64,000 nt of DNA from Candidatus Bandiella woodruffii (GTDB lineage Bacteria; Pseudomonadota; Alphaproteobacteria; Rickettsiales; Midichloriaceae), in assembly GCF_034359465.1 (NCBI RefSeq), contig NZ_CP110820.1, positions 674,501-738,500 on the forward strand, given 5' to 3'. Every line of letters begins with the position of its first letter. Position 1 is the first letter of the stretch. Shown one piece after another: positions 13,283 through 35,279 of this stretch. The notes under the pieces were generated by a model that saw nothing but the letters and a program-made list of their open reading frames with translations, searched no databases and was not told the DNA's origin. The position numbers and the translations under genes were made by a program.

Positions 13283-14135
13283 GGCACCGTCAAGTTAATG
13301 GAGGTAAGGGCGTGACAGAGCATCTTTTTGAAAATTATGCAGCAGCTATGGATTGAGCGGCGTGATCCCAAATAGATTTAGCTTCGAAAAACATTTCTTT
13401 TTGCTTGCTAGAACTGTTAATATACCTGCCCACATCTACTGAAAATATGTTCCTTATTTTTCCCATCAAAGAAAGAGTTTGCTGTACCCCAGAAGGAGAT
13501 TTGAATTTTATTAGGCATTTCTCTTTCCTGCGTGTTGGTTGGTGTGCATTTTCAACCCTATTATTTAATCCTTTATGGCGCCTATGCTCTGTTTTAGGGC
13601 ACATTTCTTTTATAGGTTTGGTATAGCTTTTTAATTTATCTGTCACGATTACTCTGGGTACTGGATTTGATTGTAATAATCTTGATAAAAACCTTATCGC
13701 AGACTTTTTATTACGTCTGGTCTGTAGGAAGACATCTATCTCATATCCATCTTCATCTACAGCTCTCCACAAAATAAAATATTTACCGTTAATTTTAATG
13801 CTCATCTCATCCAAATGCCATTTATCCTTTACTTTCCTCTGCTTCTTCTTGATTATATCTAAAAACCTTTTTCCAAATTTAATACACCATGCTCTTATCG
13901 TTTCATGGCTTACTTCTATACCCCTTTATAACAACTCTTCTGCTACGTCTCTATAACTCAAATTAAATCTGTGGTACAACCAAACTGCATGTCCTATTAT
14001 CACCATTGGATATCTGTATCTGCTCGCTCTTTCTTCCATTGTTTTTCTATTATTTTTTATTTTGCTCCAATTTACTATTTTTTCCCTCTTCTCTCAACAC
14101 CTTTTGCACCTCAACTTTTTTAACTTGACGGTGCC
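13283..14135 (-). mobile_element. IS6-family element, full copy a (853 bp)
   Basis: Inverted terminal repeat GGCACCGTCAAGTTAA at both ends. The length of 853 bp is the same in all six full copies. No 8-bp duplication flanks it. It was apparently inserted next to a broken copy of itself within a broken IS427 element. Confidence 0.92.
13335..14039 (-). CDS. IS6-family transposase with internal UAA (copy a)
   Basis: Reads MEERASRYRYPM, then ...VAEELL-stop-RGIEVSHETIRAW, and on through the DDE domain (WHLDEMSI, VTDKLKSY, NNRVENAHQ). The stop is codon 38 of 235. The downstream part without an N-terminal helix-turn-helix would be about 196 residues. See copy b for the fuller description; this copy shows the same stop. 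Confidence 0.75.
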
Positions 14136-14140
14136 TTTCC

Positions 14141-14222
14141 GTGCTTTTTCATTTCGTTACGTACTTATTTATACGCTCCTCATGCTCACGCTAAATTCCT
14201 TATAAATTCTTAAACTACTTTG
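14141..14222 (+). repeat. Partial copy of the dispersed intergenic repeat
   Basis: TTTCGTTACGTACTT...TACGCTCCTCATGCTCACG corresponds to the middle of the unit at 8638. Both ends are diverged. It fills most of the gap between the IS block and the Fe-S carrier gene. Confidence 0.5.
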
Positions 14223-14298
14223 GATATATATACTTAGACTACATTATTAGATTTACTTGCGCAATCCTTGATTGTAAATTTAAGTTTTATAATTGATA

Positions 14299-14640
14299 TT
14301 ATAAATATACAGATTCCCCACATCCGCATTTACCCTTCTCATTGGGGTTAATGAAAATAAAGCCAGATTTCACCTGTTCATCCACATAGTCAAGTGTGGT
14401 TCCAAAAATTTTCAACACAGTAGCGGGTGAGACAAAAACTCTCACCCCCTTGTCTGATATTTCTTCATCTAACGCCGCTTTTTCGTAAACATATTCAAAC
14501 TTATATTTACTGCCAGAGCATCCGCCAGTTTCAATACTCACCCTTATTCCTATTGCACCATTTTTATCTTTTTCAATCAAGTGTTTGATGTGCGAAGCAG
14601 CAGACTGGGTAATTGAAATAATGCTTTTTTCAACTTTCAT
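14299..14640 (-). CDS. A-type iron-sulfur carrier (IscA/ErpA/SufA family)
   Basis: Small scaffold or carrier protein that passes Fe-S clusters to apoproteins. The three conserved cysteines are Cys41 (GGCSGSKY), Cys105 and Cys107 (GKCGCGES), and 113 aa is typical. It starts 2 bp after the murF stop on the same strand, so it probably shares the murF transcript; no other isc or suf gene is near. The sequence does not decide between IscA, ErpA and SufA. Confidence 0.9.
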   Translation of the reverse strand: MKVEKSIISITQSAASHIKHLIEKDKNGAIGIRVSIETGGCSGSKYKFEYVYEKAALDEEISDKGVRVFVSPATVLKIFGTTLDYVDEQVKSGFIFINPNEKGKCGCGESVYL

Positions 14641-14642
14641 GC

Positions 14643-16031
14643 CTAGCCCTGTGAAAACATTTGTTTTATTTTGTCCACTATTAACATCATATTAGTACTA
14701 TGAGAACCTTTGACTAGTATTATATCACGATCTTGTATATGGTTGCAAACAATGGAAGCAATGCCCTCCGCATTTGATGCGAATCCCTGTTTGTTTTTCG
14801 CGTTATCATACAAATGTTTCATCAAATCTCCTGCACAGAAGATTAAGTCAACTCCGTCAAGATTAATATTTCTATGAAATTCTATGGATTTTTCACCCAG
14901 TTCCTTCATGTCGCCAAGGATTGCAATAACACGATTATTTTCGCCTTTGCGTAAAACTGCATTTTGGATTGCAGCTTTAAGTGCAGCAGGACTTGAATTA
15001 TAAGACTCGTCTATCAACGTAATATTATTGGATAAATTCCAAATTTGACCTCTGCCTGTAAAAGGCACAAATGTCGCAAGCGATTTCTGCGCTTTTTTTA
15101 AATCCACACCCAATAAAATAAGAGAAGCAAGTACTGCTAAAGAGTTATATATAAGGTGACTGCCCACAGCTTTATCAAATTCCTGTTGAATATGTTCCCC
15201 CATGCATTTTATATTTACCAGCACATTTCCGTTTTGCAATTTCTCAGTTCTTTCTATATAACAATCGGACTTTAACCCCTCTTCACCAAATGTTATCGTT
15301 TTTAACCCATACTTAGATGCTTGCTGATTTAAAATGTAATATGACTCGTTATTTGCATTTATTATGCCAATTCCAGAAGTCTTAACATGCTCAAATATTT
15401 CCGCTTTAGCGTATGCAATCTCATTTATTGAGCTAAAAAACTGCATATGCGCAGGTTGTACATTGACTATTATTGCAACATCAGGTCGAGCGATACTACT
15501 TAGATTCCTTATTTCTCCAGAGTGGTTCATTCCCATCTCTAGAATGCAGAAATCACTATCAACCGGAGCTTGTATGAGTGACAGTGGGAGTCCGTAATGA
15601 TTGTTTAAATTCTGTGGAGAGGCATAAACCTTGCCACATTCAGATAATGCCAATTTCAACATTTCTTTTGTACTGGTCTTTCCAAGACTACCGGTAACGC
15701 CGATGACCTTACCTGTCAAAGAATTTCTGCGATAAATTGCCATCTTGTTTATGGCATCCGCCACATTATCCACTAAAATAACTTTATGGGCGTCTTTCTC
15801 TTTTATGTCGAATACTTCCTCATCCACTATGCATAAGCTAGCCCCTTTATTCAAAGCTTCATTTGCAAACCTGTTACCATTAAAGTTTTCCCCCTTAAGG
15901 GCAAAGAACATATCACCTTGCTTAATATTTCTGGTATCTTTTGAGGCGCCAGTGATATCAGCCAATGTCTGGCTAATCTCCTGTCCCAAAGCCTGTACAA
16001 GCTCCTCTTGCCTCCACAAAATCTTCTTCAT
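14643..16031 (-). CDS. murF: UDP-N-acetylmuramoyl-tripeptide--D-alanyl-D-alanine ligase
   Basis: Adds D-Ala-D-Ala to UDP-MurNAc-tripeptide in cytoplasmic peptidoglycan precursor synthesis. SKDTRNIKQGDMFFALKG in the N-terminal domain, P-loop GVTGSLGKTSTKEM near residue 110, NNHYGLP, EMGMNHSGEI and the C-terminal DESYNSSP block are Mur-ligase features. With ftsZ, rodA and an LtaS-like gene nearby, it suggests that the organism keeps some capacity to build a wall. It lies about 45 bp downstream of rplS, usually an unrelated operon, so transcription may read through. Confidence 0.95.
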   Translation of the reverse strand: MKKILWRQEELVQALGQEISQTLADITGASKDTRNIKQGDMFFALKGENFNGNRFANEALNKGASLCIVDEEVFDIKEKDAHKVILVDNVADAINKMAIYRRNSLTGKVIGVTGSLGKTSTKEMLKLALSECGKVYASPQNLNNHYGLPLSLIQAPVDSDFCILEMGMNHSGEIRNLSSIARPDVAIIVNVQPAHMQFFSSINEIAYAKAEIFEHVKTSGIGIINANNESYYILNQQASKYGLKTITFGEEGLKSDCYIERTEKLQNGNVLVNIKCMGEHIQQEFDKAVGSHLIYNSLAVLASLILLGVDLKKAQKSLATFVPFTGRGQIWNLSNNITLIDESYNSSPAALKAAIQNAVLRKGENNRVIAILGDMKELGEKSIEFHRNINLDGVDLIFCAGDLMKHLYDNAKNKQGFASNAEGIASIVCNHIQDRDIILVKGSHSTNMMLIVDKIKQMFSQG

Positions 16032-16075
16032 TGGCTAAAAAAGCATTTTAAAGGGCGTTGACAATTTTTTATAGT

Positions 16076-16459
16076 TTAGGCTTTGCTAGGCTTGTTGCTT
16101 AAGTCTCTTTTTTCTTTAATCCTAGCAGCTTTACCAACTAGTTCCCTCATATAGTATAACTTCGCTCTTTTAACTTTACCTCTGCGAATTACTTCTATTT
16201 TTGTCACTAATGGTGAATAAAGAGGGAACGTTTTTTCAAAGCACATTCCTCCACTAATTTTTTTCACTTTAAAGGTAGAGCCTAACCTACTCTTGCTTCG
16301 TCCAAGACAAACTCCCTCAAAAAGCTGAATACGCTCGTTGCCTTCGTCTATAATTTTATTGTGGACAATTATTGTATCACCTGGTCTAAAGTCAGGTATA
16401 TGCTTATCCTTGGTCAATACAGCAATTTGCTTTTCAATATATTGCTCAGCTAGGTTCAT
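16076..16459 (-). CDS. rplS: 50S ribosomal protein L19
   Basis: Large-subunit protein at the interface with the 30S subunit. [34 protein letters not shown] and a basic [15 protein letters not shown] tail are L19 signatures; 127 aa is normal. The start overlaps the end of trmD by 14 bp, which suggests translational coupling. Last gene of rpsP-rimM-trmD-rplS. Confidence 0.97.
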
Positions 16460-17168
16460 TTTTTACTCCTTTTAAGTATTTATTCCATAAATCAGGCCTA
16501 ATATCTCTGGTTTTTTCTTCGGCCTTATTTATTCTCCACTCTTTTATTTTATTATGATTTCCTGAAGTCAACACTTCTGGAACTTTATTAGATCTCCACA
16601 CAACAGGCTTTGTGTAATGCGGATATTCTAAAAGGCTTTCATAACAACCATCTCCAAAGCTTTCTTCTTTTAGCGAATTCTCGTTGCCTAAAACTCCAGG
16701 CAACAACCTTAAACAACAATCTATAAAGGCAAAAGAAGCTATGTCACCAGAAGATAAAACATAGTCTCCTACGCTTACCTCCATTACCTTATACTCGTTT
16801 ATCACCCTTTCGTCAACACCTTCAAAACGTCCACATAAAATATTTATACCTTCTGCAGATTGAATAAAAAATTTTGCCATTTTTTGGTTAAACAACTTGC
16901 CTCTAGGTGAAAGATAAACTATTGGGAAGCTGTTGGGTAAAAAAAACTTCTCTATTGCTTCACCCAATACGTCAGCTCTTAACACCATCCCTCCTCCACC
17001 TCCATAAGGAGGTGAATCCACAGTTTTATGTTTGTTTGAGGCAAAGTCTCTAATGTTTTTGGTGCTAATATCCCATAATCCAACTTCCAATGCTTTGCCT
17101 GGGATGGAACACTTGAGGGGACCGGGGTATATTTCTGGGAATAATGTCAGTATATTTACATGCCACAT
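16446..17168 (-). CDS. trmD: tRNA (guanine-N1)-methyltransferase TrmD
   Basis: Methylates G37 of tRNAs with G at position 36, preventing +1 frameshifting. SPOUT-fold enzyme with [35 protein letters not shown] and [10 protein letters not shown], which form the SAM knot. Length 240 aa is typical. It sits between rimM and rplS in the conserved order. Confidence 0.97.
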
Positions 17169-17208
17169 TTTAGATTATACTTTCAATCATTAATTTAGCT
17201 ATATCTAT

Positions 17209-17742
17209 CTAAATGAAATCTTTGTAATTTTCTCCAAGCCTGAGGTATCTATCAAAAAAATTTATCTCACCAACAAACTTTTCTTGAAAAGGATAGAAAA
17301 AAGTCGAACTTTTGTTGCAATGCTCCACCTCCAACAGGTCGCCAGCCCCAAAATTATGCATTACTCTTGCCCACCCTATATGATCATTCTCCAATGAGTT
17401 AACCGCAAAATTTTTAATAAAATTTCCATAAGACACAATGTTATTAAAATCTATTTCAGATATTCTTATGCAAAAAGTTAAGTTTTTGAGTTTTGCTGCT
17501 TGGTCCCTGTTTTCGATACCATCAATTTTAACTATAAATTCACTATTACCACTTTGCTTAACTTGTGCTTTATATTCTTGCTCAGAGTTGTCAAACAGGA
17601 CGAAGCTATTTCTTTTAAAGGACAAACCAAAAGAACACTCCCTCACTTTTATCTCACCTTTTACACCATAAGGCTTTACTTGATTGAAGATGGGAATGTT
17701 ATAATTCCCACCAAGGTCTAAAGGCGTGCCTATGATGTTCAA
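17209..17742 (-). CDS. rimM: Ribosome maturation factor RimM
   Basis: Binds S19 and assists 30S head assembly. N-terminal PRC-barrel-like region [12 protein letters not shown] and a C-terminal half ending in [12 protein letters not shown]; 177 aa. The only reasonable start is a TTG that overlaps the rpsP stop (TTGA), implying coupled translation. This gives an N-terminal extension of some 15 residues over the usual protein, and no internal ATG or GTG is available before the conserved block. The sequence is diverged, but position and both domains fit. Confidence 0.88.
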
Positions 17743-18062
17743 TTTTTTTTATCAGATGATTTTTTTGAAGCAGACTCTTTACTTTTTAAAATAGGTTTGG
17801 CTTGAATAAGTTCTTTTTTCTCCAGGAATTTAACCACTCTATCTGTTGGTTGAGCCCCAACCGATAACCAGTGCTTTATCCTCTCCTGATTCAAGATAAT
17901 TCTATTATTATCTTCTTTGGCAAGCATAGGGTTATATGTTCCTACTTTTTCTAGAAATCTTCCATCTCTTGGCGCGTCTGCATTAGCTACAACTACTCTA
18001 TAATACGGTTTCTTTTTAGCTCCAGCTCTTGCTAGTCTGATTTTGACTGTCATAAAATTCAT
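17739..18062 (-). CDS. rpsP: 30S ribosomal protein S16
   Basis: Small-subunit assembly protein. [33 protein letters not shown] and the [12 protein letters not shown] block are diagnostic; a lysine- and serine-rich tail extends it to 107 aa. First gene of the operon. Its stop overlaps the rimM TTG start. Confidence 0.97.
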
Positions 18063-18221
18063 TTTATTAAATTAATACAGAGTATATACATAAAAAAAGC
18101 CCATCTGTAAAGACAAGAAATTAGGAGTTGCGAACAAGGACAGTAACTATAAGCAATAGCTTTAATTTTAGCACTACTTTAAAGGGCAAAGTGTGGTAGC
18201 GAAGTAGTGATAAGTCTAAAG

Positions 18222-19074
18222 GGCACCGTCAAGTTAAAAAAGTTGAGGTGCAAAAGGTATTGAGAGAAGAGGGAAAAAATAGTAAATTGGAGCAAAATAA
18301 AAAATAATAGAAAAACAATGGAAGAAAGAGCGAGCAGATACAGATATCCAATGGTGATAATAGGACATGCAGTTTGGTTGTACCACAGATTTAATTTGAG
18401 TTATAGAGACGTAGCAGAAGAGTTGTTATAAAGGGGTATAGAAGTAAGCCATGAAACGATAAGAGCATGGTGTATTAAATTTGGAAAAAGGTTTTTAGAT
18501 ATAATCAAGAAGAAGCAGAGGAAAGTAAAGGATAAATGGCATTTGGATGAGATGAGCATTAAAATTAACGGTAAATATTTTATTTTGTGGAGAGCTGTAG
18601 ATGAAGATGGATATGAGATAGATGTCTTCCTACAGACCAGACGTAATAAAAAGTCTGCGATAAGGTTTTTATCAAGATTATTACAATCAAATCCAGTACC
18701 CAGAGTAATCGTGACAGATAAATTAAAAAGCTATACCAAACCTATAAAAGAAATGTGCCCTAAAACAGAGCATAGGCGCCATAAAGGATTAAATAATAGG
18801 GTTGAAAATGCACACCAACCAACACGCAGGAAAGAGAAATGCCTAATAAAATTCAAATCTCCTTCTGGGGTACAGCAAACTCTTTCTTTGATGGGAAAAA
18901 TAAGGAACATATTTTCAGTAGATGTGGGCAGGTATATTAACAGTTCTAGCAAGCAAAAAGAAATGTTTTTCGAAGCTAAATCTATTTGGGATCACGCCGC
19001 TCAATCCATAGCTGCTGCATAATTTTCAAAAAGATGCTCTGTCACGCCCTTACCTCCATTAACTTGACGGTGCC
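18222..19074 (+). mobile_element. IS6-family element, full copy b (853 bp)
   Basis: Flanked by GGCACCGTCAAGTTAA inverted repeats. Left and right 8-mers (GTCTAAAG and TATAAAAC) differ, so no duplication remains. The right end is only 12 bp from the stop of the M16 peptidase gene. Confidence 0.93.
18318..19022 (+). CDS. IS6-family transposase with internal UAA (copy b)
   Basis: Continuous reading frame from ATG 18318 to 19022, broken only by TAA at 18429-18431 (codon 38). N-terminal half-domain MEERASRYRYPM...LYHRFNLSYRDVAEELL; after the stop RGIEVSHETIRAWCIKFGK, then the DDE catalytic core with Asp in WHLDEM, Asp in VTDKLKSY and Glu in NNRVENAHQ, and the C-terminal RFKSP-like block. The match to IS6/IS240 transposases is clear. 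Translation of the catalytic part would need UAA readthrough, internal initiation (a TTG at 18543 is available), or supply in trans. Confidence 0.78.
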
Positions 19075-19086
19075 TATAAAACTCAT

Positions 19087-20352
19087 CTAAAATTTTAGTT
19101 TATCTACGATCTTATTATAATCGTAAATATTTTCAATGTTTCCGAGTGTTGTTAGAGTTATATTGTTTTTTGACAATATTTTTTTTGCCATATTTGTTAA
19201 AGATTGAACGGAAACTTTATTTATTTCGTTTAATATTTCATCGTTGCTTATATACCTGCCAAACATTGCAAAGCTATTGCTAATTTTTTTAGCCCTTGCA
19301 GAAGTGCACTCCATAGACATTAATATGCCGGATATCATCTGCGCCTTAGCTCTATCAATTTCTTTATCGTTGATGTTTTTGGTCAGATAATGAAGCTGTT
19401 CTGTTAACAAATCAATCATAAGGTTGATGTTTTTAGAGTCTAAAGCTGCATAAACTCCAAAAACTCCGCAATCACTATAGCTGCTTGAGAAAGAAGATAT
19501 GTTATACACTAGCCCCTTTTTTTCACGAATTTCTTGAAACAAGCGAGAGGACATGCCTCCACCTAAAATCACAGAAAGTATCTGAGAATCGTAAAAATTA
19601 TCATCAAGGTAAGATACTCCTTCAAACCCCAATAGAAATTGAGCCTGCTCAAGAGGTTTTTTAACATGAAGTTCTCCACCAATATATTTGCCAAGTTTGT
19701 ACTGATTTGTTTCGTTTGAGTTGAAGTCCTGAAATTTTTGCTCAATTAAACCATGAAAAGCGGCGACATCAAAATTACCAGCAGCGGAAACAATTGTGTT
19801 TTTTGTGGAATACTGATTTTTAAAGTAATTAACCAGTTCCTCTCTTGTTAAATTTTTGATAAACTCTTCTGTTCCTAAGATAGAGCGTCCCAAAGGCTGA
19901 TTACCAAAAGCTGCTTCCTGAAAATAATCAAAGACAATATCGTCGGGAGTATCACGTGTCATGTATAGCTCCTGCAATATAACCTCTCTTTCTCTCTCTA
20001 ATTCCTCCGCGTCAAAAGTGGAATTAAGGAAAATATCGGTAAGTATGTCGATTGCTTTAGATAGGTCATTCTTCAAAACTTTGGCATAGTAAACGGTGGC
20101 TGTTTTGGAAGTGTATGCGTTAAACTGTCCGCCTATCATGTCAAATTCTTCGGCTATGTTGGTTGCGCTTCTGGTATTTGTACCTTTAAAAGCCATGTGT
20201 TCTAGAAAATGTGAGATTCCATTATTTCCTTCGGTCTCGTTCCTGCTACCATTCTTTACTAAGATATTAATAGTAACGCTCTCCACCTCCTGTATTTTGT
20301 CTGTAGCGATAACCAACCCGTTTTCTTTTACAATCGAACTAATAGATGTCAT
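19087..20352 (-). CDS. M16-family zinc metallopeptidase (mitochondrial processing peptidase-like)
   Basis: Zinc peptidase of the pitrilysin family. The inverted zinc motif HFLEHM (HxxEH) is near residue 55, with the distal Glu in the EREREVILQEL stretch about 75 residues later. GGQFNAYTSK and the C-terminal GGGMSSRLFQEIREKKGLVY are typical of the MPP-beta/YmxG type; one-domain length of 421 aa. The Met at 20352 (MTSISSIVKENGL) is preferred over one 14 codons upstream. Rickettsial M16 proteins are the closest bacterial relatives of mitochondrial processing peptidase; substrates in bacteria are unknown. Confidence 0.92.
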   Translation of the reverse strand: MTSISSIVKENGLVIATDKIQEVESVTINILVKNGSRNETEGNNGISHFLEHMAFKGTNTRSATNIAEEFDMIGGQFNAYTSKTATVYYAKVLKNDLSKAIDILTDIFLNSTFDAEELEREREVILQELYMTRDTPDDIVFDYFQEAAFGNQPLGRSILGTEEFIKNLTREELVNYFKNQYSTKNTIVSAAGNFDVAAFHGLIEQKFQDFNSNETNQYKLGKYIGGELHVKKPLEQAQFLLGFEGVSYLDDNFYDSQILSVILGGGMSSRLFQEIREKKGLVYNISSFSSSYSDCGVFGVYAALDSKNINLMIDLLTEQLHYLTKNINDKEIDRAKAQMISGILMSMECTSARAKKISNSFAMFGRYISNDEILNEINKVSVQSLTNMAKKILSKNNITLTTLGNIENIYDYNKIVDKLKF

Positions 20353-20400
20353 AAAATAATTCAAATATAACTTTGATTCATATACTCCATTCACCTCAAA

Positions 20401-20515
20401 ACAAGCATTTTGCCGCGCACTTTTATACGCTCATCGTTCACATTTTTTGCTCTTTTTTAAGCTACCTGTTGTTTATAAATTTTCCAATTCTTAATTTACT
20501 AAAGGTATACTATAA
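20401..20515 (+). repeat. Diverged copy of the dispersed intergenic repeat
   Basis: ACTTTTATACGCTCATCGTTCAC, then CTGTTGTTTATAAATTTTCC and TTTACTAAAGGTATAC follow the order of segments in the unit at 8638. It fills about half of the 20395-20628 gap; the rest shows no feature that I can name. Confidence 0.5.
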
Positions 20516-20628
20516 ATTTATTTATATATAATCAAGCGAATCAAGCGAAAGAATATGCTTAAAGTATTTTTAAAGTTGAATTGGAAGCCTGGCCAAAAGG
20601 TCAAAGCAACGTTGATACAGTAATAAGG

Positions 20629-22023
20629 TTATGGGTTGTTCTTCTTATTTCGTAAAAAAGTTGGAATTTCAAAAATGCTGCTAGCTTTGTTGTTTGACGT
20701 TTCTTTGTCTGAGTGGGGGGTTCGAGAGTCTACCTTGTCTTCTTCCTCTTTACCCCGATCATCTAAGAAGTCAAAATAGTTTACTTTTTCTAAAACTGTA
20801 TCCTCTTGGCTATTGTTGCTCGTATCTGAATGAAAACGAAAAGAGCTTTGTTTAAAATCTTTGATATTGTTTTGATCGTAGCTATTACTGCTGATTTTTT
20901 CTTCTACATTCTCATCTGGAGCTTGCTCTGAGAAGCTTATTGGTTGGTTGGTCACTTGTTGTTTTTGCTCAATTACCACCTCTTTTTTTACTTGGTTCTC
21001 CGAAAATGATATTGTTCCAGATTTACTGAGCAAATTGTTGTTGATTGTTTTTGGTATATGGACATCTATCCCAGTCGCCACAACAGAAACTCTTAATTTG
21101 CCTTCTAGGTTCGCATCAAATGCTGAACCGAAAATGATGTTTGCATCTGAGTCAACTTCCTCTTTGATTCTGTTTGCAGCTTCGTCAACTTCAAATAAGG
21201 TCATATCCATTCCGCCAGTGATGTTAATCAAGACACCTCTTGCCCCTTTCATTGAAGAGTGGTCAAGAAGTGGATTGGATATAGCCGCTTCTGCCGCTTT
21301 AATTGCCCTGTTTTCTCCATCTGCTTCGCCAGTTCCCATCATTGCTTTACCCTTTTCATTCATAACAGTATGTATATCGGCAAAATCCAGGTTGATAAGA
21401 CCTGGCTTAGTTATTAGATCTGTAACTCCCTTTACACCGGCATGTAGCACTTCATCAGCCATTTTGAAAGCATCTGCGAAAGTTGTCTTTTCGTTAGCCA
21501 ATCTAAACAAGTTTTGGTTTGGTATAACGATAAGAGTGTCGACGTATTTTTGTAGTTCTTCTAATCCTTCTTCAGCCACTTTCATTCTTCTTGCGCCTTC
21601 AAAGTGGAATGGTTTTGTTACTACGCCAACTGTTAGGATGTTGCGTTCTTTTGCAAGTTTTGCCACTACCGGAGCTCCACCAGTTCCAGTGCCACCTCCC
21701 ATTCCCGCAGTAATAAACACCATGTTAAACTTTTCTAATATTTCTATTATCTCATCAGAAGATTCTTGCGCTGCAACTTCGCCCATTCCAGGGTTGGAGC
21801 CAGCACCAAGCCCTTTTGTTGATGCTATCCCAAATTTTATTTTATTGCCTGCCAACGAATTTTCAAGTGCTTGAGCGTCGGTGTTAGCGGCGAAAAAATC
21901 CACTCCCTCAAGATTTGCTGAAATCATGTTATTTACTGCGTTAACACCACCACCTCCCACTCCAAAAACAGCTATTTTAGGTGTTAACTCTGTTGTAGTT
22001 GGAATGCTAATTTTAATACTCAT
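20629..22023 (-). CDS. ftsZ: Cell division protein FtsZ
   Basis: Tubulin-like GTPase forming the division ring. [13 protein letters not shown] at the N-terminus, the signature GGGTGTG near residue 110, and the T7-loop region [11 protein letters not shown] are present. Residues after about 320 form a long, low-complexity acidic linker, and the protein ends [11 protein letters not shown], a good conserved C-terminal peptide for FtsA/ZipA-type partners. Here ftsZ is not in a dcw cluster: 16S rRNA lies upstream on the opposite strand. Confidence 0.98.
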
Positions 22024-22150
22024 GTTTACTGTATTTTACGAAATGATATAAATTTTTGTATTTATATGTATAAATAATACAGGCCCTGTTTATTTGCAAA
22101 TATATTTCTCGTATTGTTTTACAATCTGTAAAAATAAATGAAAATAACAA

Positions 22151-22178
22151 TTGACTTCACATGAAAAACGTTTATAAG
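22151..22178 (+). promoter_or_regulatory. Likely 16S rRNA promoter
   Basis: TTGACT at 22151-22156, 16-bp spacer, TATAAG at 22173-22178, about 90 bp before the mature 16S start and upstream of the processing stem. Confidence 0.55.
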
Positions 22179-22211
22179 TAGCTGTACTGATCGATTTATT
22201 TGAAATTGTGA

Positions 22212-24007: not shown

Positions 24008-24860
24008 GGCACCGTCAAGTTAAAAAAGTTGAGGTGCAAAAGGTATTGAGAGAAGAGGGAAAAAATAGTAAATTGGAGCAAAATAAAAAATAATAGAAAA
24101 ACAATGGAAGAAAGAGCGAGCAGATACAGATATCCAATGGTGATAATAGGACATGCAGTTTGGTTGTACCACAGATTTAATTTGAGTTATAGAGACGTAG
24201 CAGAAGAGTTGTTATAAAGGGGTATAGAAGTAAGCCATGAAACGATAAGAGCATGGTGTATTAAATTTGGAAAAAGGTTTTTAGATATAATCAAGAAGAA
24301 GCAGAGGAAAGTAAAGGATAAATGGCATTTGGATGAGATGAGCATTAAAATTAACGGTAAATATTTTATTTTGTGGAGAGCTGTAGATGAAGATGGATAT
24401 GAGATAGATGTCTTCCTACAGACCAGACGTAATAAAAAGTCTGCGATAAGGTTTTTATCAAGATTATTACAATCAAATCCAGTACCCAGAGTAATCGTGA
24501 CAGATAAATTAAAAAGCTATACCAAACCTATAAAAGAAATGTGCCCTAAAACAGAGCATAGGCGCCATAAAGGATTAAATAATAGGGTTGAAAATGCACA
24601 CCAACCAACACGCAGGAAAGAGAAATGCCTAATAAAATTCAAATCTCCTTCTGGGGTACAGCAAACTCTTTCTTTGATGGGAAAAATAAGGAACATATTT
24701 TCAGTAGATGTGGGCAGGTATATTAACAGTTCTAGCAAGCAAAAAGAAATGTTTTTCGAAGCTAAATCTATTTGGGATCACGCCGCTCAATCCATAGCTG
24801 CTGCATAATTTTCAAAAAGATGCTCTGTCACGCCCTTACCTCCATTAACTTGACGGTGCC
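24008..24860 (+). mobile_element. IS6-family element, full copy c (853 bp)
   Basis: Full copy with intact GGCACCGTCAAGTTAA ends. The left flank is the 16S downstream region; the right flank is the interior of the IS1-like element, whose right end is missing. No target duplication, consistent with an adjacent deletion. Confidence 0.93.
24104..24808 (+). CDS. IS6-family transposase with internal UAA (copy c)
   Basis: Same reading frame and same codon-38 TAA as copy b; no further stop. I saw no amino-acid difference from copy b in the catalytic part. Confidence 0.75.
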
Positions 24861-25487
24861 TGTTTGAGTTATTGGACTCAATTGAGAGTGTATGTTGTTT
24901 GCCAACAACATGTTGATGGCGAGGTATAACCTCTGAATAAACAGACCAATCGTCTGTGTAATAACTGCAATTATCTCTACTTATGATTTTCCACAATTTT
25001 CTAAAGGTTGTAACGTTACGCTTACCAACCACCCAGGCAACAACTCTCTTGAGCTCCCTACTATAGGCTTTCCATATCCATAATTTGTTTTTTTGAATCT
25101 ACAAAATGCCACATCTCATCTATTTCAACTTCTCTCAATTCTTCCGGCACTGTTGGTCTTGGTATCTTTTTAGCATACAGTATTATCCACTTATATACGC
25201 TAGTATGAGCTACTTTAAATAATTTCCCTAGCCATCTAAAGCTACTTTTTCCCATGCTGTACAATAACACTGCCAGAGCCTTCATCTCTGGCGAACAGCC
25301 TCTTAATTTAGTGCTTGTAAAATTACATACACACTCTTTGCATTTATACCTTTGCATACCCATAATATTACCATTCTTAACGTATTTACTGCTACTGCAT
25401 TTTTTACACTCTGTATTCATATTTCTATTTTCTTTGTTGCTCGCTATATTCATTTTAGCATCTTATCTATCTTATGGCAACACTCCC
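24861..25487 (-). mobile_element. Second IS1-family element, copy 2, right part deleted
   Basis: Runs from the left terminus (25487, reverse strand) inward to 24861, where copy c of the IS6 element begins. The orfA frame is 25061-25453, with CKKC...CKEC zinc ribbon; the orfB part is incomplete. The junction has seven A, as in the copy at 5832. The transposase is not functional. Confidence 0.85.
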
Positions 25488-26634: not shown

Positions 26635-26739
26635 TAACGATAACGACCAATACTATTACATTTTGCAATTCAAGTCATAATATTACATATATCACTAAAT
26701 AGCAAAATATTGGTTATTATACACCTCAAGTTAAATTAA

Positions 26740-26868
26740 GAATTAACAAAAAAAGCGATGAATATAAGTGATTAGCATGGGAAGTGCCTAATAATACATA
26801 ATGAAGTGCCCCAATCCGGAATATTTTAAGGTCAACTTTTAAAAGACGCAGAGTATACAATAGAGTCT
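26740..26868 (-). repeat. Dispersed intergenic repeat, reverse copy
   Basis: Complement of the unit at 8638, diverged: ATAAGTGATTAGCATGGG...CATAATGAAGTGCC...TTAAGGTCAACTTTT...GAGTATAC. It fills much of the 290-bp gap between divergent engB and folP; no promoter was convincing. Confidence 0.55.
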
Positions 26869-26924
26869 GTTGTTGATGTACGAAAGATGTGCTAATCTCG
26901 GCCTATATTAAAACTACTCTTTTC

Positions 26925-27695: not shown

Positions 27696-27710
27696 TTAAA
27701 CAGTCAGTCT

Positions 27711-29312
27711 ATGTCAGAGTTACTTTTTGAAATTTATTCAGAAGAAATCCCAAGCGAAATGCAGGAGTACGGGGCTAAAAAGCTGTACGATATGATAAGT
27801 ACAAAGTTAGAGGAGTTATTTGATCATAAAATTATTGGTCAATATTTCTTTACTCCAAGAAGGATTGGGTTTTATATCGAAAGTATACCAACAATACTGC
27901 AAGCAAAGATTGAGGAGGTAAGAGGTCCTAAAATTCAGGCCCCTAAAAACGCCATAGATGGGTTTTTAAAAAAATATAACCTAACGGAGACTTCAGAGCT
28001 TGTAGAAAAAAATGGATACTACCATTTTTTGCAAAAAATGGAGGGGAAAAGTACACTTGAGTTGTTACACCAATTACTAGAAGAAGTTGTTGCAACATTC
28101 CCTTGGCCTAAATCAATGAAATGGGCCAATTACCAAATCAAATGGATTAGACCGATCCACTCTATATTATGCGTATATGGAGGCAAAGTTATACCGGTCA
28201 AGTACGGGCATATAACTGCAAGTAACATCACAACTGGGCGTTGGATGTTAAATGAAGCGATGATTCAGGTCAATTCTTTCTCGGAGTACCAAACAAACCT
28301 GCAAAAAGCAGAAGTAGAAATTTTTCAGGAACAAAGAATAAATTCAATAAAAAAGCAGGTCGAACAAAAGATAGCGAACCTCAATGTTAGTATGATCGAA
28401 GATCATGATCTTTTGCATGAAGTAGCAAATTTGGTTGAATCTCCATACGTAGCAATTGGGAAGATAGATAGCAAATTCATGCAATTGCCAAAAGAAGTGC
28501 TGGTCACAACGCTTAAATTCCACCAAAAATATCTGATGATGGAATGTGGAAACAAGGAGCTGGCACCATACTTCATTATAGTTTCCAATATTATGACCGA
28601 CGATGGCCTGCAAACTGTAATTACAGGGAACGAAAAAGTGCTAAAAGCACGGCTTTCTGATGCTGAATTCTTCTATACACAAGACACAAATACAAAACTT
28701 ATCGATAAATTTCAAGCATTAAAAAAAGTTACATTTCACCATGAAATAGGTAGCTATTACGACAAAATTCAACTCATCAAACAAGTAGCTGTGGATTTAG
28801 CTAAGCAATTGCAAGTTGATCAAAGCCTGGTCGAACACACAACTCTGTTAATTAAGTCAGACTTGGTTACAGATATGGTCAAAGAGTTACCAGAATTACA
28901 AGGGATTGTTGGATATTATTACGCATTAAAAGATGGGGAGACAAAAGAAGTAGCAGCTGCGATCAAAGAACATTATCTGCCTCAGGGACCTAGTGACCCA
29001 GTTGTTACATCCAACTTAAGCATCCTCATGGCTTTAGCTGACAAGATGGTCACATTAAATTCCATGTTTAAGATTGGCATCAAGCCAACAGGATCAAAAG
29101 ACCCGTTTGCTCTGCGTCGAGCTGCAATTGGAATTATCAGGATTATATGCGCTAATCAATTAAGTTTGAAAGTTCATGATATGCTAAGAAGTGATGTAAT
29201 CAATTTCATTTTGGATAGAGTCGAAATCTTGGAAAAAGAAATAGGCGAAGGAAAAAATGCATATTTAATAGACTTGTGCTACATTAAAGAAGCGTTAATA
29301 ACCAGATCTTAG
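27711..29312 (+). CDS. glyS: Glycyl-tRNA synthetase beta subunit, short at the C-terminus
   Basis: Beta subunit of the alpha2beta2 glycyl-tRNA synthetase. ELLFEIYSEEIPSEM at the start, TPRRIGFYI, WPKSMKW, WIRPIHSI, PKEVLVTTLKFHQKY and KPTGSKDPFALRRAAIG are family blocks. At 533 aa it is some 130-160 residues shorter than usual: it stops soon after DRVEILEKEIG, losing most of the C-terminal anticodon-binding-like domain. The missing part is not visible in another frame downstream. glyQ is not in the window. Confidence 0.92.
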   Translation: MSELLFEIYSEEIPSEMQEYGAKKLYDMISTKLEELFDHKIIGQYFFTPRRIGFYIESIPTILQAKIEEVRGPKIQAPKNAIDGFLKKYNLTETSELVEKNGYYHFLQKMEGKSTLELLHQLLEEVVATFPWPKSMKWANYQIKWIRPIHSILCVYGGKVIPVKYGHITASNITTGRWMLNEAMIQVNSFSEYQTNLQKAEVEIFQEQRINSIKKQVEQKIANLNVSMIEDHDLLHEVANLVESPYVAIGKIDSKFMQLPKEVLVTTLKFHQKYLMMECGNKELAPYFIIVSNIMTDDGLQTVITGNEKVLKARLSDAEFFYTQDTNTKLIDKFQALKKVTFHHEIGSYYDKIQLIKQVAVDLAKQLQVDQSLVEHTTLLIKSDLVTDMVKELPELQGIVGYYYALKDGETKEVAAAIKEHYLPQGPSDPVVTSNLSILMALADKMVTLNSMFKIGIKPTGSKDPFALRRAAIGIIRIICANQLSLKVHDMLRSDVINFILDRVEILEKEIGEGKNAYLIDLCYIKEALITRS

Positions 29313-29379
29313 GGGAAAGCCAGAGGAGTGATAACTAAAGGAAAAAACATTGTCTCGTCCAGATTAATAGGAGAACATC

Positions 29380-29631
29380 ATGAGCAAAGAACTACTTAAT
29401 TTAAAAAACGTTGGGAAAGCCATGCTACGCGATTTAGAGTTACTCGGCATTACTTCAGTACAACAGCTTAAAACTCAAAATCCTGATAGTCTATATGAGA
29501 GAATACAAAAAATCACTGGGACAAAGCATTATCCATGCGTATGGGATGTTTTTGCAGCTATTATCCACGAGGCCAACACAGGTGAAAAACTGCCATGGTG
29601 GCATTTTAGCAAGATCAGAACAGAGTGTTAG
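29380..29631 (+). CDS. Cdd1-type helix-hairpin-helix protein, tail replaced by an IS end
   Basis: Resembles the small 'pathogenicity locus' Cdd1 family: LKNVGKAMLRDLELLGI (helix-hairpin-helix), then TGTKHYPCVWDVFAAIIHEA and PWWHFSKIR. Function unknown; the fold suggests nucleic-acid binding. AGGAG lies 7 bp before the ATG. The last codons (TGT TAG) lie inside the terminus of an IS1-like fragment beginning at 29622, so the native stop has been lost, probably with few residues. Confidence 0.8.
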   Translation: MSKELLNLKNVGKAMLRDLELLGITSVQQLKTQNPDSLYERIQKITGTKHYPCVWDVFAAIIHEANTGEKLPWWHFSKIRTEC

Positions 29632-29920
29632 CCAAAGATAGATATAAAATTGCCCTGCTCACTTAGGAAATTATTGTTATCCTCAAAATGTACCCAGAGC
29701 TTAATCGTAAGATCGACAACTTCTTCAGATTTTGAAACTACCTTTGTTTTTCTGGTCATTCTTGCAATTCTGTGCCTTGTGTTTGAGTTATTGGACTCAA
29801 TTGAGAGTGTATGTTGTTTGCCAACAACATGTTGATGGCGAGGTATAACCTCTGAATAAACAGACCAATCGTCTGTGTAATAAGTGCAATTATCTCTACT
29901 TATGATTTTCCACAATTTTC
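29622..29920 (-). mobile_element. Right-end fragment of the second IS1-family element
   Basis: Terminal AGAGTGTTAGCCAAAGATAG followed by the last part of the InsB-like frame. The rest of the element is missing. The outermost 52-53 bp are repeated inverted at 30801-30853. Confidence 0.85.
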
Positions 29921-29947
29921 GGTTCTGTCGCATCTGTGAAAATTCAG
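29921..29947 (+). mobile_element. 27-bp scrap resembling an IS6-type terminus
   Basis: GGTTCTGTCGCATCTG is shared with 6756-6771. It is trapped between the IS1-like fragment and copy d of the 853-bp element. Confidence 0.45.
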
Positions 29948-30800
29948 GGCACCGTCAAGTTAATGGAGGTAAGGGCGTGACAGAGCATCTTTTTGAAAAT
30001 TATGCAGCAGCTATGGATTGAGCGGCGTGATCCCAAATAGATTTAGCTTCGAAAAACATTTCTTTTTGCTTGCTAGAACTGTTAATATACCTGCCCACAT
30101 CTACTGAAAATATGTTCCTTATTTTTCCCATCAAAGAAAGAGTTTGCTGTACCCCAGAAGGAGATTTGAATTTTATTAGGCATTTCTCTTTCCTGCGTGT
30201 TGGTTGGTGTGCATTTTCAACCCTATTATTTAATCCTTTATGGCGCCTATGCTCTGTTTTAGGGCACATTTCTTTTATAGGTTTGGTATAGCTTTTTAAT
30301 TTATCTGTCACGATTACTCTGGGTACTGGATTTGATTGTAATAATCTTGATAAAAACCTTATCGCAGACTTTTTATTACGTCTGGTCTGTAGGAAGACAT
30401 CTATCTCATATCCATCTTCATCTACAGCTCTCCACAAAATAAAATATTTACCGTTAATTTTAATGCTCATCTCATCCAAATGCCATTTATCCTTTACTTT
30501 CCTCTGCTTCTTCTTGATTATATCTAAAAACCTTTTTCCAAATTTAATACACCATGCTCTTATCGTTTCATGGCTTACTTCTATACCCCTTTATAACAAC
30601 TCTTCTGCTACGTCTCTATAACTCAAATTAAATCTGTGGTACAACCAAACTGCATGTCCTATTATCACCATTGGATATCTGTATCTGCTCGCTCTTTCTT
30701 CCATTGTTTTTCTATTATTTTTTATTTTGCTCCAATTTACTATTTTTTCCCTCTTCTCTCAATACCTTTTGCACCTCAACTTTTTTAACTTGACGGTGCC
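29948..30800 (-). mobile_element. IS6-family element, full copy d (853 bp)
   Basis: Intact ends, no target duplication. Opposite in orientation to copy e, 406 bp away. Confidence 0.93.
30000..30704 (-). CDS. IS6-family transposase with internal UAA (copy d)
   Basis: Same frame and same codon-38 stop as the other copies; no extra stop. Lies between two inverted IS1-like scraps. Confidence 0.75.
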
Positions 30801-30853
30801 ATAATTTCCTAAGTGAGCAGGGCAATTTTATATCTATCTTTGGCTAACACTCT
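30801..30853 (+). mobile_element. 53-bp right-end scrap of the second IS1-family element, inverted
   Basis: Complement of the outer end of the fragment at 29622. Its orientation is opposite to what a simple insertion of copy d into one element would leave; see the inversion finding. Confidence 0.8.
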
Positions 30854-30868
30854 GGATTTTTTTAGTGG

Positions 30869-30941
30869 TGCCCAGAGACGGAATTGAACCGCCGACACAA
30901 GGATTTTCAGTCCTTTGCTCTACCGACTGAGCTATCTGGGC
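30869..30941 (-). tRNA. tRNA-Phe (GAA anticodon)
   Basis: Reverse-strand cloverleaf: GCCCAGA acceptor, AGCTCAGTCGGTAGAGC D arm, GAA in the anticodon loop, GGTTCAATTCC T arm, encoded CCA at 30866-30868. About 30 bp from tRNA-Glu. Confidence 0.95.
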
Positions 30942-30971
30942 AATAATGAGTGGTCGTTTATAGATATCTGG

Positions 30972-31044
30972 CGACCCCTACGGGATTCGAACCCGTATTG
31001 CCACCGTGAAAGGGTGGAGTCCTAAACCATTAGACGAAGGGGTC
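30972..31044 (-). tRNA. tRNA-Glu (TTC anticodon)
   Basis: Reverse-strand cloverleaf: GACCCCT acceptor, CGTCTAATGG D arm, CCCTTTCACGG anticodon arm, GGGTTCGAATCCC T arm, encoded CCA at 30969-30971. Confidence 0.95.
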
Positions 31045-31118
31045 TCTATCAAGTACTGGAGATTATATATATTTGCACATAAATTCAACATTTTTTTCAT
31101 ATAATTCCAAAAATACTT

Positions 31119-31206
31119 GGGAGTGTTGCCATAAGATAGATAAGATGCTAAAATGAATATAGCGAGCAACAAAGAAAATAGAGATATGAATACAGAGTGT
31201 AAAAAA
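31119..31206 (+). mobile_element. Left-end fragment of the second IS1-family element
   Basis: GGGAGTGTTGCCATAAGATAG through the orfA start region, cut by copy e at 31207. The same end occurs inverted at 32060-32165 beyond copy e. Confidence 0.88.
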
Positions 31207-32059
31207 GGCACCGTCAAGTTAAAAAAGTTGAGGTGCAAAAGGTATTGAGAGAAGAGGGAAAAAATAGTAAATTGGAGCAAAATAAAAAATAATAGAAAAA
31301 CAATGGAAGAAAGAGCGAGCAGATACAGATATCCAATGGTGATAATAGGACATGCAGTTTGGTTGTACCACAGATTTAATTTGAGTTATAGAGACGTAGC
31401 AGAAGAGTTGTTATAAAGGGGTATAGAAGTAAGCCATGAAACGATAAGAGCATGGTGTATTAAATTTGGAAAAAGGTTTTTAGATATAATCAAGAAGAAG
31501 TAGAGGAAAGCAAAGGATAAATGGCATTTGGATGAGATGAGCATTAAAATTAACGGTAAATATTTTATTTTGTGGAGAGCTGTAGATGAAGATGGATATG
31601 AGATAGATGTCTTCCTACAGACCAGACGTAATAAAAAGTCTGCGATAAGGTTTTTATCAAGATTATTACAATCAAATCCAGTACCCAGAGTAATCGTGAC
31701 AGATAAATTAAAAAGCTATACCAAACCTATAAAAGAAATGTGCCCTAAAACAGAGCATAGGCGCCATAAAGGATTAAATAATAGGGTTGAAAATGCACAC
31801 CAACCAACACGCAGGAAAGAGAAATGCCTAATAAAATTCAAATCTCCTTCTGGGGTACAGCAAACTCTTTCTTTGATGGGAAAAATAAGGAACATATTTT
31901 CAGTAGATGTGGGCAGGTATATTAACAGTTCTAGCAAGCAAAAAGAAATGTTTTTCGAAGCTAAATCTATTTGGGATCACGCCGCTCAATCCATAGCTGC
32001 TGCATAATTTTCAAAAAGATGCTCTGTCACGCCCTTACCTCCATTAACTTGACGGTGCC
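31207..32059 (+). mobile_element. IS6-family element, full copy e (853 bp)
   Basis: Intact ends, no target duplication. Flanked on both sides by left ends of the IS1-like element in opposite orientations, which cannot result from a simple insertion. Confidence 0.93.
31303..32007 (+). pseudogene. IS6-family transposase with two internal stops (copy e)
   Basis: Has the shared UAA at codon 38 and, unique to this copy, CAG changed to TAG at 31501 (in KKKQRK) plus a Val-to-Ala change just after. The catalytic part downstream is otherwise as in the other copies. Confidence 0.75.
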
Positions 32060-32165
32060 GTATTTACTGCTACTGCATTTTTTACACTCTGTATTCATAT
32101 TTCTATTTTCTTTGTTGCTCGCTATATTCATTTTAGCATCTTATCTATCTTATGGCAACACTCCC
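32060..32165 (-). mobile_element. Left-end fragment of the second IS1-family element, inverted
   Basis: Reverse-strand left terminus ending CAACACTCCC at 32165. It is the counterpart of 31119-31206. Confidence 0.88.
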
Positions 32166-32251
32166 AAGAACTTTTTACAACAGATTTTAGATGAATACTT
32201 GATACATTCGTTGAATGTTGCTAGATTGACCTTAAAATATTTCATCACCCT

Positions 32252-33340
32252 ATGTCTTTTGAAGATAGACTGAACAAAATAATAAATAGATATAACAGCT
32301 TAAACGACATACTGTCAGATCCAACTAAAATTTCATCTCAAGATTTTGCAAAAATTGCCAAGGAGCATTCTGATCTGTCTGAAATAAATCTCGAGGCAAT
32401 AGAATATCTAAATAACGTTGTGATGCTTAAAGAAGCAGACGAAATATTATCCAATAAAAATGCAGATAAGGAGCTGAAAGACTTGGCAAATGATCAGAAA
32501 AAAGAAGCCAAAGCCAACCTGGCAAAAATAAAAGAACAACTTCAAGTCATGCTACTTCCTAAAGATAGTGCAGATGAAAAAGGAAGTATAATAGAAATAA
32601 GAGCCGGCACAGGTGGTGACGAAGCTGCACTTTTTGCCGCAGTGTTATTTAGAATGTACCAGAAGTACGCAGAAAAAATGGGCTGGAAGTTTGAGATATT
32701 GTCACTCTCTGATAGTACCCTTGAAGGGTATAAGGAAGCCATAGCTCAGATTAGCGGCAAAGGCGTTTATAAAAGGCTTAAATATGAATCTGGGGTACAT
32801 AGAGTGCAAAGAGTACCAGCCACGGAAGCAAACGGACGCATACATACTTCAGCGGCAACTGTTGCAGTTTTGCCAGAAGCTGAGGACATAGACTTAAAAA
32901 TTGAGGAAAAGGACATAAGAATCGATGTTTACAGATCAAGTGGAGCGGGTGGGCAGCACGTTAATACAACTGATAGTGCCGTTCGAATCACCCATATTCC
33001 AACCGGGATCGTGGTTGTGCAATCGGAAAAATCACAACATCAAAACAGAGCAAAAGGACTAAAAATACTAAAATCAAGGTTATATGAATTGGAGCGAAGT
33101 AAAAAAGATCTGGAGAGATCAGAACTAAGAAAAGGGCAAGTTGGAACTGGCGATAGGTCTGAAAGGATAAGAACCTATAATTACCCACGAAACAGAGTCA
33201 CGGATCACAGGGTCAATGTGACTATGTATAACTTGGAGGAAGTGGTTGCAGAAGGTAAGCTAGAACCTTTTATCGACGCTTTGATTGCTGATGATCAAGC
33301 AAAAAAACTTGCGCACGATGAGTTTGGTAATGATAGATAG
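32252..33340 (+). CDS. prfA: Peptide chain release factor 1
   Basis: Recognises UAA and UAG and triggers peptide release. The PAT tripeptide anticodon is in [15 protein letters not shown], and the catalytic GGQ in [16 protein letters not shown]; the N-terminal coiled domain and 362-aa length are typical of RF1, not RF2. This matters for the UAA shared by the IS6 transposases: a normal RF1 is present. prmC does not follow; rodA overlaps the end by 23 bp. Confidence 0.97.
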
Positions 33341-34442
33341 TAGCCTAAAAAAAGACTATTTACCTGGGTTGCTCTTGGGGCTGTTATCTGTTTTAATGCT
33401 TGTAAGCATATTCTCAATGTATTCCGTATCTGGAGGGGTTGTAGCCCCCATAGTAACTAAGCAACTCTATATCTCTGCCCTTTCTCTGTTCATGATGTTT
33501 GTTTTCTCTAAGATTAATCTAAAATTAATATTCCGGAGTTCATACGATGTTTATCTGGTTATCTTATGCGCCCTTGTGGTAACAGAGTTTTTAGGCCATA
33601 TCGGAATGGGGGCGAAGAGGTGGATAAATTTAGGAATAATCAATATTCAACCCTCTGAGTTTATGAAAATTGGGCTAATCTTAGCACTCGCCCATTATTT
33701 TTATAATTGCCATGTTGATAGCATTGTAAAAACAAGGTTTTTGCTGTCTCCTGCGATTTTAGTTTTATTGCCAAGCATTCTGATAATGAAACAACCGAAT
33801 TTAGGTACAGCCATGATTATTATATCAACAGCTGCAACCATATTTTTTTTAGCTGGGGTAAGGGTAAGAGTATTTGTTTGTTTAGGGGTGATAACGCTTG
33901 TTAGCATGCCTATTATTTGGAGATTTTTGTATGACTATCAAAAAACCAGGGTTCTGACTTTTTTAGACCCAATGCACGACAAATTAGGAGCAGGATACAA
34001 CATAATTCAATCGATAATTAGCATAGGTTCTGGAGGTGTATTCGGCAAAGGTTTCTTAAAAGGTTCTCAGAATCAATTGGATTTCTTGCCAGAAAATCAT
34101 ACAGACTTTATATTTGGCTTAATAGCTGAGGAAGGTGGTTTTGTTTTATGCTTAGCTTTGTTTCTGATTTATTTCGCAATAACTTTGATTTTATACCTTA
34201 TGAGCGTGCGATGTGATTTTCAATTCCATAGATTGGTTATCCTTGGTTTCGCCTCGTTATTATTTTTCCATGTTTTTATCAACATAGGCATGATATCTGG
34301 CTTATTACCAGTAGTTGGCGTGCCATTGCCATTCCTATCATATGGTGGTTCAAATTTCATCGCTATGATGATTGGCGTAGGCCTGGTATTGAATTGCTAT
34401 ACCAACAAAAAAGTTACTCTCAAGACGGCACCGTCAAGTTAA
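33318..34442 (+). CDS. rodA: Rod-shape determining protein RodA (SEDS family), end supplied by an IS
   Basis: Membrane glycosyltransferase that polymerises peptidoglycan during elongation. About ten membrane segments; [34 protein letters not shown] and [12 protein letters not shown] are SEDS motifs, and length and motifs favour RodA over FtsW. The start is ATG 33318 or 33330, both inside prfA, so translation is probably coupled. The final codons (ACG GCA CCG TCA AGT TAA) are the terminal repeat of copy f, so the native C-terminus has been replaced after TNKKVTLK; little is lost. Confidence 0.92.
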
Positions 34443-35279
34443 TGGAGGTAAGGGCGTGACAGAGCATCTTTTTGAAAATTATGCAGCAGCTATGGATTGA
34501 GCGGCGTGATCCCAAATAGATTTAGCTTCGAAAAACATTTCTTTTTGCTTGCTAGAACTGTTAATATACCTGCCCACATCTACTGAAAATATGTTCCTTA
34601 TTTTTCCCATCAAAGAAAGAGTTTGCTGTACCCCAGAAGGAGATTTGAATTTTATTAGGCATTTCTCTTTCCTGCGTGTTGGTTGGTGTGCATTTTCAAC
34701 CCTATTATTTAATCCTTTATGGCGCCTATGCTCTGTTTTAGGGCACATTTCTTTTATAGGTTTGGTATAGCTTTTTAATTTATCTGTCACGATTACTCTG
34801 GGTACTGGATTTGATTGTAATAATCTTGATAAAAACCTTATCGCAGACTTTTTATTACGTCTGGTCTGTAGGAAGACATCTATCTCATATCCATCTTCAT
34901 CTACAGCTCTCCACAAAATAAAATATTTACCGTTAATTTTAATGCTCATCTCATCCAAATGCCATTTATCCTTTACTTTCCTCTGCTTCTTCTTGATTAT
35001 ATCTAAAAACCTTTTTCCAAATTTAATACACCATGCTCTTATCGTTTCATGGCTTACTTCTATACCCCTTTATAACAACTCTTCTGCTACGTCTCTATAA
35101 CTCAAATTAAATCTGTGGTACAACCAAACTGCATGTCCTATTATCACCATTGGATATCTGTATCTGCTCGCTCTTTCTTCCATTGTTTTTCTATTATTTT
35201 TTATTTTGCTCCAATTTACTATTTTTTCCCTCTTCTCTCAATACCTTTTGCACCTCAACTTTTTTAACTTGACGGTGCC
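34427..35279 (-). mobile_element. IS6-family element, full copy f (853 bp)
   Basis: Intact ends, no target duplication. It joins the last codons of rodA to the middle of an unrelated coiled-coil gene, so sequence between them has been lost or moved. Confidence 0.93.
34479..35183 (-). CDS. IS6-family transposase with internal UAA (copy f)
   Basis: Same frame and same codon-38 stop as the other copies; no additional stop seen. Confidence 0.75.

What the first reader, a model, noticed from the sequence alone, without database searches (positions are those of the whole stretch)
13335..35183. A UAA stop at the same codon in all six copies of the 853-bp IS6-family element
Every full copy (13283, 18222, 24008, 29948, 31207, 34427) reads VAEELL, then TAA, then RGIEVSHETIRAW in the same frame, and the DDE core continues intact for another 197 codons. 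A dead transposase should not have spread to six near-identical copies. Either the stop is read through, translation restarts downstream, an intact copy elsewhere moves the others in trans, or the split is part of the element's regulation. RF1 in this genome looks normal, which makes genome-wide UAA recoding unlikely.
Basis: partly seen in the sequence, partly recalled or inferred. Interest (0 to 1): 0.72.

Follow-up and report, generated by a model that had tools for sequence, protein, structure and literature searches.

The report
Broken jumping gene spread by helpers
A small jumping gene in an intracellular bacterium exists in 38 full-length copies whose mobility enzyme is cut short in every one, yet insertion scars show that broken copies did jump, most likely driven by intact sister copies that survive only as fragments.

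Summary
The TAA at codon 38 is real in all six window copies of the 853-bp IS6-family element (here E1). The downstream frame is not intact in all six: copy 31207 has a second stop, TAG at codon 67. Genome-wide there are 38 full copies: 22 TAA only, 12 TAA+TAG, 4 TAG only, none open. Three truncated copies keep both sense codons (TAC=Tyr, CAG=Gln), and E1-type relatives have Tyr or Phe at codon 38. The stops are nonsense mutations on a once-intact element.

No full copy has a direct 8-bp target duplication. Instead, 8-bp duplications are split between two E1 ends (9 matches, 8 distinct; 0-1 in controls), including three double-stop copies, a TAG-only copy and TAA-only pairs. This is the known signature of IS6 intramolecular replicative transposition, so stop-bearing copies very probably moved. 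Two different stops spread, no tRNA reads a stop codon, and RF1 is normal. I infer that transposase came in trans from intact E1 copies, since wrecked by other mobile elements. Recombination reshuffled the stop alleles. Readthrough is unlikely; restart at TTG codon 76 is not excluded but would remove the DNA-binding domain. This is a well-documented instance of a known kind.

The parts
13283..14135 (-). E1 copy, 853 bp, 16-bp terminal inverted repeats; haplotype TAA at codon 38, CAG at codon 67
   Evidence: L001
13335..14039 (-). E1 transposase frame, 234 codons from ATG to the final TAA, interrupted by TAA at codon 38; IS6 family
   Evidence: NCBIfam NF033587; PF13610 (with the stop read as Tyr)
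13926..13928 (-). TAA at codon 38
18222..19074 (+). E1 copy, TAA/CAG; TAA at 18429-18431
   Evidence: L011
24008..24860 (+). E1 copy, TAA/CAG; TAA at 24215-24217
   Evidence: L010
29948..30800 (-). E1 copy, TAA/CAG; TAA at 30591-30593
   Evidence: L009
31207..32059 (+). E1 copy with two stops: TAA at 31414-31416 (codon 38) and TAG at 31501-31503 (codon 67)
   Evidence: L026
34427..35279 (-). E1 copy, TAA/CAG; TAA at 35070-35072
   Evidence: L008
13151..13283 (+). Fragment of an older E1 copy (element positions 1-133) directly abutting the full copy at 13283: E1 inserted into E1

Best explanation
E1 is an ordinary IS6-family insertion sequence that was once intact in this lineage (Tyr at codon 38, Gln at codon 67). 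Two nonsense mutations, TAC to TAA at codon 38 and CAG to TAG at codon 67, arose in member copies. Copies with either stop, or both, kept their terminal inverted repeats and were amplified by replicative transposition, part of it intramolecular, leaving inverted neighbouring pairs with the 8-bp target duplication split between them. Transposase was supplied in trans by intact E1 copies, which were later truncated by other mobile elements (E1 itself, an E2-type IS6 element, IS1, a group II intron). Homologous recombination between copies shuffled the stop alleles. E1 is now a large non-autonomous, probably stranded family. Shown: the stops and their counts, the ancestral sense codons, the split duplications on stop-bearing copies, the juxtaposition of stop-bearing copies with TAC and TAC/CAG pieces, and the lack of an intact copy in the assembly. 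Inferred: that the stops were already there when those copies moved, the identity of the helper, and the order of events.
For: 38 full copies, none open; TAC/CAG only in three truncated copies. E1-type relatives have Tyr/Phe at codon 38. Five exact 8-bp split duplications between full copies versus a control mean of 0.19 (max 2 of 729 controls); nine with fragment ends versus 0-1. They include double-stop L028/L029/L030, TAG-only L093 and TAA-only pairs. Paired full copies always share the haplotype (permutation p 0.002). The target of L013/L014 exists uninterrupted elsewhere. Full TAA copies abut TAC or TAC/CAG pieces (L014, L016, L021), so sense-codon copies coexisted with them. The split duplication is the published product of IS6 intramolecular inversion (PMC7986276). 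No suppressor tRNA among 34; RF1 normal.
Against: IS26 transposase is reported to act preferentially, in one assay exclusively, in cis (PMC7986276; PMC7885326), which would disfavour stop-bearing copies. The helper is not seen: the TAC/CAG pieces reach only element positions 344-382, or have an interrupted body, so it is not shown that any of them was fully open when the dead copies moved. Alleles recombine between copies, so some stops may have been acquired after insertion.
Confidence: 0.7

Rival explanations
1. Copies spread while intact; afterwards gene conversion replaced the sense codons with stop alleles across the dispersed copies, as described for nonfunctional IS copies of Wolbachia wBm.
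For: All four combinations of the codon 38 and 67 alleles exist, and C750T occurs on every full-copy background, so alleles have been exchanged between copies. Precedent in wBm, cited in PMC3196728 and PMC3004938.
Against: Both partners of every full-copy split duplication carry the same haplotype (p 0.002), and the trio L028-L030 is identical with two stops. Conversion would have to hit both partners alike each time, though local conversion between neighbours could partly do that.
Confidence: 0.17
2. The intact transposase of another IS6 element in the same genome (E2, 832 bp, more than 20 near-identical full copies) moves E1 in trans.
For: E2 is the only full-length open IS6 transposase found, is still present, and shows the same split 8-bp duplications.
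Against: 32% protein identity. E2 ends GGYTCTGTCGCATCTGT agree with E1 ends at 7 of the first 9 bases and poorly beyond, while E1-type ends GGCACCGTCAA(G/C)TTAA are kept with E1-type transposases in other orders. IS26 relatives with 84-93% identical transposases and identical terminal repeats mostly fail to cooperate in the targeted reaction (PMC7885326).
Confidence: 0.07
3. E1 transposase is still made, by readthrough of the stops or by restart of translation downstream, possibly as part of the element's regulation.
For: The DDE part is unbroken in most copies. A TTG start at codon 76 lies downstream of both stops. An analogous claim exists for ISCaa9 of Amoebophilus, where a UGA is present in all 15 copies (PMC3196728).
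Against: Two different stops (UAA, UAG), both present in 12 copies. No stop-reading tRNA. No marked structure after the stop (z -1.6). Restart at TTG 76 begins one codon before the first catalytic Asp, after the start of the PF13610 match at residue 72, and lacks the helix-turn-helix; [quoted passage not shown] Coding variants show no constraint, on small numbers.
Confidence: 0.06

Closest known systems
IS6 (IS26) family insertion sequences
   Same: Length 853 bp, short near-perfect terminal inverted repeats, single DDE transposase frame, 8-bp duplications, split between inverted copies as in published intramolecular inversion
   Different: Every full copy in this genome has a nonsense-interrupted transposase; no direct duplications remain at any full copy
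Nonfunctional IS copies homogenised by gene conversion in Wolbachia wBm (Cordaux 2009, as cited in PMC3196728 and PMC3004938)
   Same: Intracellular Rickettsiales; near-identical copies disabled by shared stops; allele exchange between copies
   Different: Here split 8-bp duplications link stop-bearing copies of matching haplotype, pointing to movement and not only conversion
ISCaa9 of Amoebophilus asiaticus (PMC3196728)
   Same: A stop at one codon in all copies of an IS in an intracellular symbiont
   Different: There UGA with readthrough as Trp was proposed; here UAA plus a second UAG, with ancestral Tyr and Gln codons found in the same genome
MITEs and other non-autonomous elements mobilised in trans
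   Same: Ends kept, no working transposase, dependence on a helper
   Different: E1 is full length and disabled only by point mutations

Membership tests
IS6 family insertion sequence | IS6-type DDE transposase sequence | tested here: met
   NF033587 transpos_IS6 207 bits (cut-off 125); PF13610 105 bits; the frame was read with codon 38 as Tyr
IS6 family insertion sequence | Length about 700-890 bp with short terminal inverted repeats | tested here: met
   853 bp; GGCACCGTCAAGTTAA at both ends
IS6 family insertion sequence | 8-bp target duplication | tested here: met
   Only as duplications split between two copies; no direct pair at any full copy
IS6 family insertion sequence | Intact transposase frame | tested here: not met
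   0 of 38 full copies; the family assignment rests on the sense-codon ancestor, so E1 is a defective member
Programmed stop-codon readthrough element | Stop conserved at the same codon in relatives | tested here: not met
   Tyr or Phe in E1-type relatives; one distant match (33% identity, L074) has a stop at the aligned place
Programmed stop-codon readthrough element | Product spanning the stop | not testable with these tools
   Needs mass spectrometry or reporter fusions
Gene-converted nonfunctional IS family (wBm type) | Allele exchange between dispersed copies | tested here: met
   Four-gamete pattern at codons 38 and 67, and C750T on all full-copy backgrounds
Trans-mobilised non-autonomous element | Defective copies carry marks of transposition | tested here: met
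   Split 8-bp duplications on all three stop haplotypes
Trans-mobilised non-autonomous element | A helper transposase acts on it | not testable with these tools
   Only pieces of an intact E1 lineage remain; needs an experiment

The most novel reading that the evidence does not exclude
E1 still works as a split transposase: a short DNA-binding peptide ends at codon 37 or 66, the DDE core restarts at TTG 76, and the two act together, so every stop haplotype remains mobile.
Probability: 0.04. Interest if true: 0.7.

Novelty: new member of a known kind. Interest (0 to 1): 0.33.

Why it matters
It is a clear natural record of an insertion-sequence family overrun by its own nonsense alleles: dead copies outnumber and outlast intact ones, and the scars indicate that dead copies moved and were not only gene-converted. 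If true it also bears on how strict the cis preference of IS6 transposases is in nature. And it warns that a stop shared by every copy of an IS in view is not evidence for readthrough, because the whole genome held the ancestral codon and a second stop.

Tried and rejected
One search scored only 40 of 73 candidates, so the copy count was cross-checked with pattern searches at codon 38 (46 sites) and codon 67 (43 sites), which agree with 38 full copies plus fragments. I first suspected a missing residue next to the stop; the alignment with relatives shows none. Direct 8-bp duplications: none at 38 copies, which led to the split-duplication test. A shared recoding site near residue 66 was considered because some relatives have stops or a frameshift there; these are different mutations in single copies (TGA in L108, a frameshift in L061, a stop in L121), while most relatives are open. 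Clustering of the stops in the N-terminal third is not significant: 35% of all one-step nonsense changes fall at or before codon 67. Structure search by sequence gave nothing useful. Plasmid collection: only distant IS6 hits in Piscirickettsia and Legionella. The species could not be named.

Full report
Observation. The window contains six 853-bp IS6-type elements (E1), three on each strand, with 16-bp inverted repeats and near-identical sequence. In all six, codon 38 of the 234-codon frame (ATG at element position 97) is TAA. In five the frame after it is open for 196 codons; in copy 31207 a second stop, TAG, stands at codon 67.

Genome. The window is C1:674501-738500 of a 1.225-Mb assembly in three contigs, 99.97% complete. 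Matching records in relatives include a Midichloriaceae MAG and Candidatus Aquarickettsia, so the genome is most likely a Midichloriaceae-type Rickettsiales (inference). A DNA search and two pattern searches agree on 38 full copies plus fragments: 46 sites cover codon 38, 36 TAA and 10 TAC. Reading every copy gives, among full copies, 22 TAA/CAG, 12 TAA/TAG and 4 TAC/TAG, and none TAC/CAG. The codon 70 change V to A always accompanies TAG. TAC/CAG occurs only in three truncated copies; three further TAC pieces do not reach codon 67.

Ancestral state. In E1-type relatives from Holosporales, Paracaedibacter, Thiotrichales and Midichloriaceae, codon 38 is Tyr or Phe, and Glu in more distant rhizobial ones; one distant match (33% identity, L074) has a stop at the aligned place. 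TAC is therefore ancestral. TAA is a one-base nonsense change, as is CAG to TAG. Most relatives have open frames, and their few stops or frameshifts are private.

Did stop-bearing copies move? No full copy has a direct 8-bp duplication. IS6 intramolecular transposition in its inversion mode leaves two inverted copies with the target duplicated in inverted orientation, one duplicate with each IS (PMC7986276). Testing for that, five exact 8-bp matches link full copies, against a mean of 0.19 and a maximum of 2 in 729 shifted controls. With fragment ends included there are nine matches (eight distinct), against 0-1 in controls. L005/L006, L013/L014 and L016/L017 are inverted neighbours within 5 kb and all TAA/CAG. 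L029 shares one duplication with L030 and another with L028, 35 kb away, in opposite orientation each time; all three are double-stop copies. L093 (TAG only), L004 (TAA only) and L030 share duplications with fragments. Full-copy partners always have the same haplotype, p 0.002 by permutation. The target of the L013/L014 pair lies in another repeated mobile element, whose uninterrupted form is present at about a dozen places in the held sequence, two of them in the window. The intact element E2 shows the same kind of split duplication, so this is how IS6 elements spread in this genome.

Where did the transposase come from? Full TAA copies abut TAC or TAC/CAG pieces (L014, L016, L021), so sense-codon copies coexisted with them. 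The three TAC/CAG copies are wrecked: one next to a full E1 copy, one by an E1 end followed by an E2-type element, and one with IS1 and a group II intron in its body. E2, the only full-length open IS6 transposase found, is 32% identical with different ends, while E1-type ends are conserved with E1-type transposases across orders. A lost E1 helper is therefore preferred over E2; this is inference. The reported cis preference of IS26-family transposases (PMC7986276, PMC7885326) is the main point against it, although a frameshifted IS26 does take part in the targeted reaction when its partner is intact.

Readthrough, restart and recoding. The genome has 34 tRNAs and none reads a stop. RF1 is intact. 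RNA structure after the stop is unremarkable. Readthrough would have to act on UAA at 38, UAG at 67, and both in 12 copies. Restart is possible with ATG, GTG or TTG only from TTG 76, just before the first catalytic Asp, without the helix-turn-helix. The seven coding variants among copies and fragments are two nonsense, four missense and one synonymous, as expected without constraint; numbers are small.

Recombination. All four combinations of the codon 38 and 67 alleles exist, and C750T occurs on every full-copy background, so exchange between copies occurred, as reported for dead IS copies in Wolbachia wBm (cited in PMC3196728). Conversion may have helped the stops spread, but it does not explain the split duplications with matching haplotypes as simply as movement of dead copies does.

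Verdict. The stop is real, but it is nonsense decay of an IS6 element whose dead copies were most likely carried along in trans and reshuffled by recombination. It is a new, well-documented instance of a known kind, of modest interest.

Noticed in passing
L058 (C1:74273 onward), L059 and L060 (C2, about 54 kb and 60 kb): A diverged relative of E2 carries its own shared TAG at a Tyr codon in the N-terminal part (GRYSLSY to GR*SLSY) in all three copies seen: another stop-bearing IS6 lineage in the same genome.
   Followed up: no
L161:256-402 (C1:961455-961601) and L161 about 11-143: A 147-bp element with E1 ends on both sides, and next to it a 133-bp element with E2-type ends: MITE-like pieces of both families.
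   Followed up: partly
L164:210-2205 (C1:186509-188504): A TAC/CAG E1 copy whose body is interrupted by an IS1-type element and a group II intron (Rfam RF02001 and RF01998); the intron-E1 junction also occurs in L165 and on the plasmid-like contig C2 (L169).
   Followed up: partly
C1:154125-155531: Two tandem 277-bp E1 5' pieces (both TAC) directly followed by a full TAA copy.
   Followed up: no
L025 and L027 (C1:889543 and 928343): Two E1 copies of different haplotype share the same left flank but not the right one: a duplicated or recombined segment.
   Followed up: no
window 5929-6228, 24861-25160, 12461-12760, 35820-36119: Other repeated mobile elements (IS1-like and an IS4/IS5-like element, the latter in split frames) crowd the same region.
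   Followed up: no
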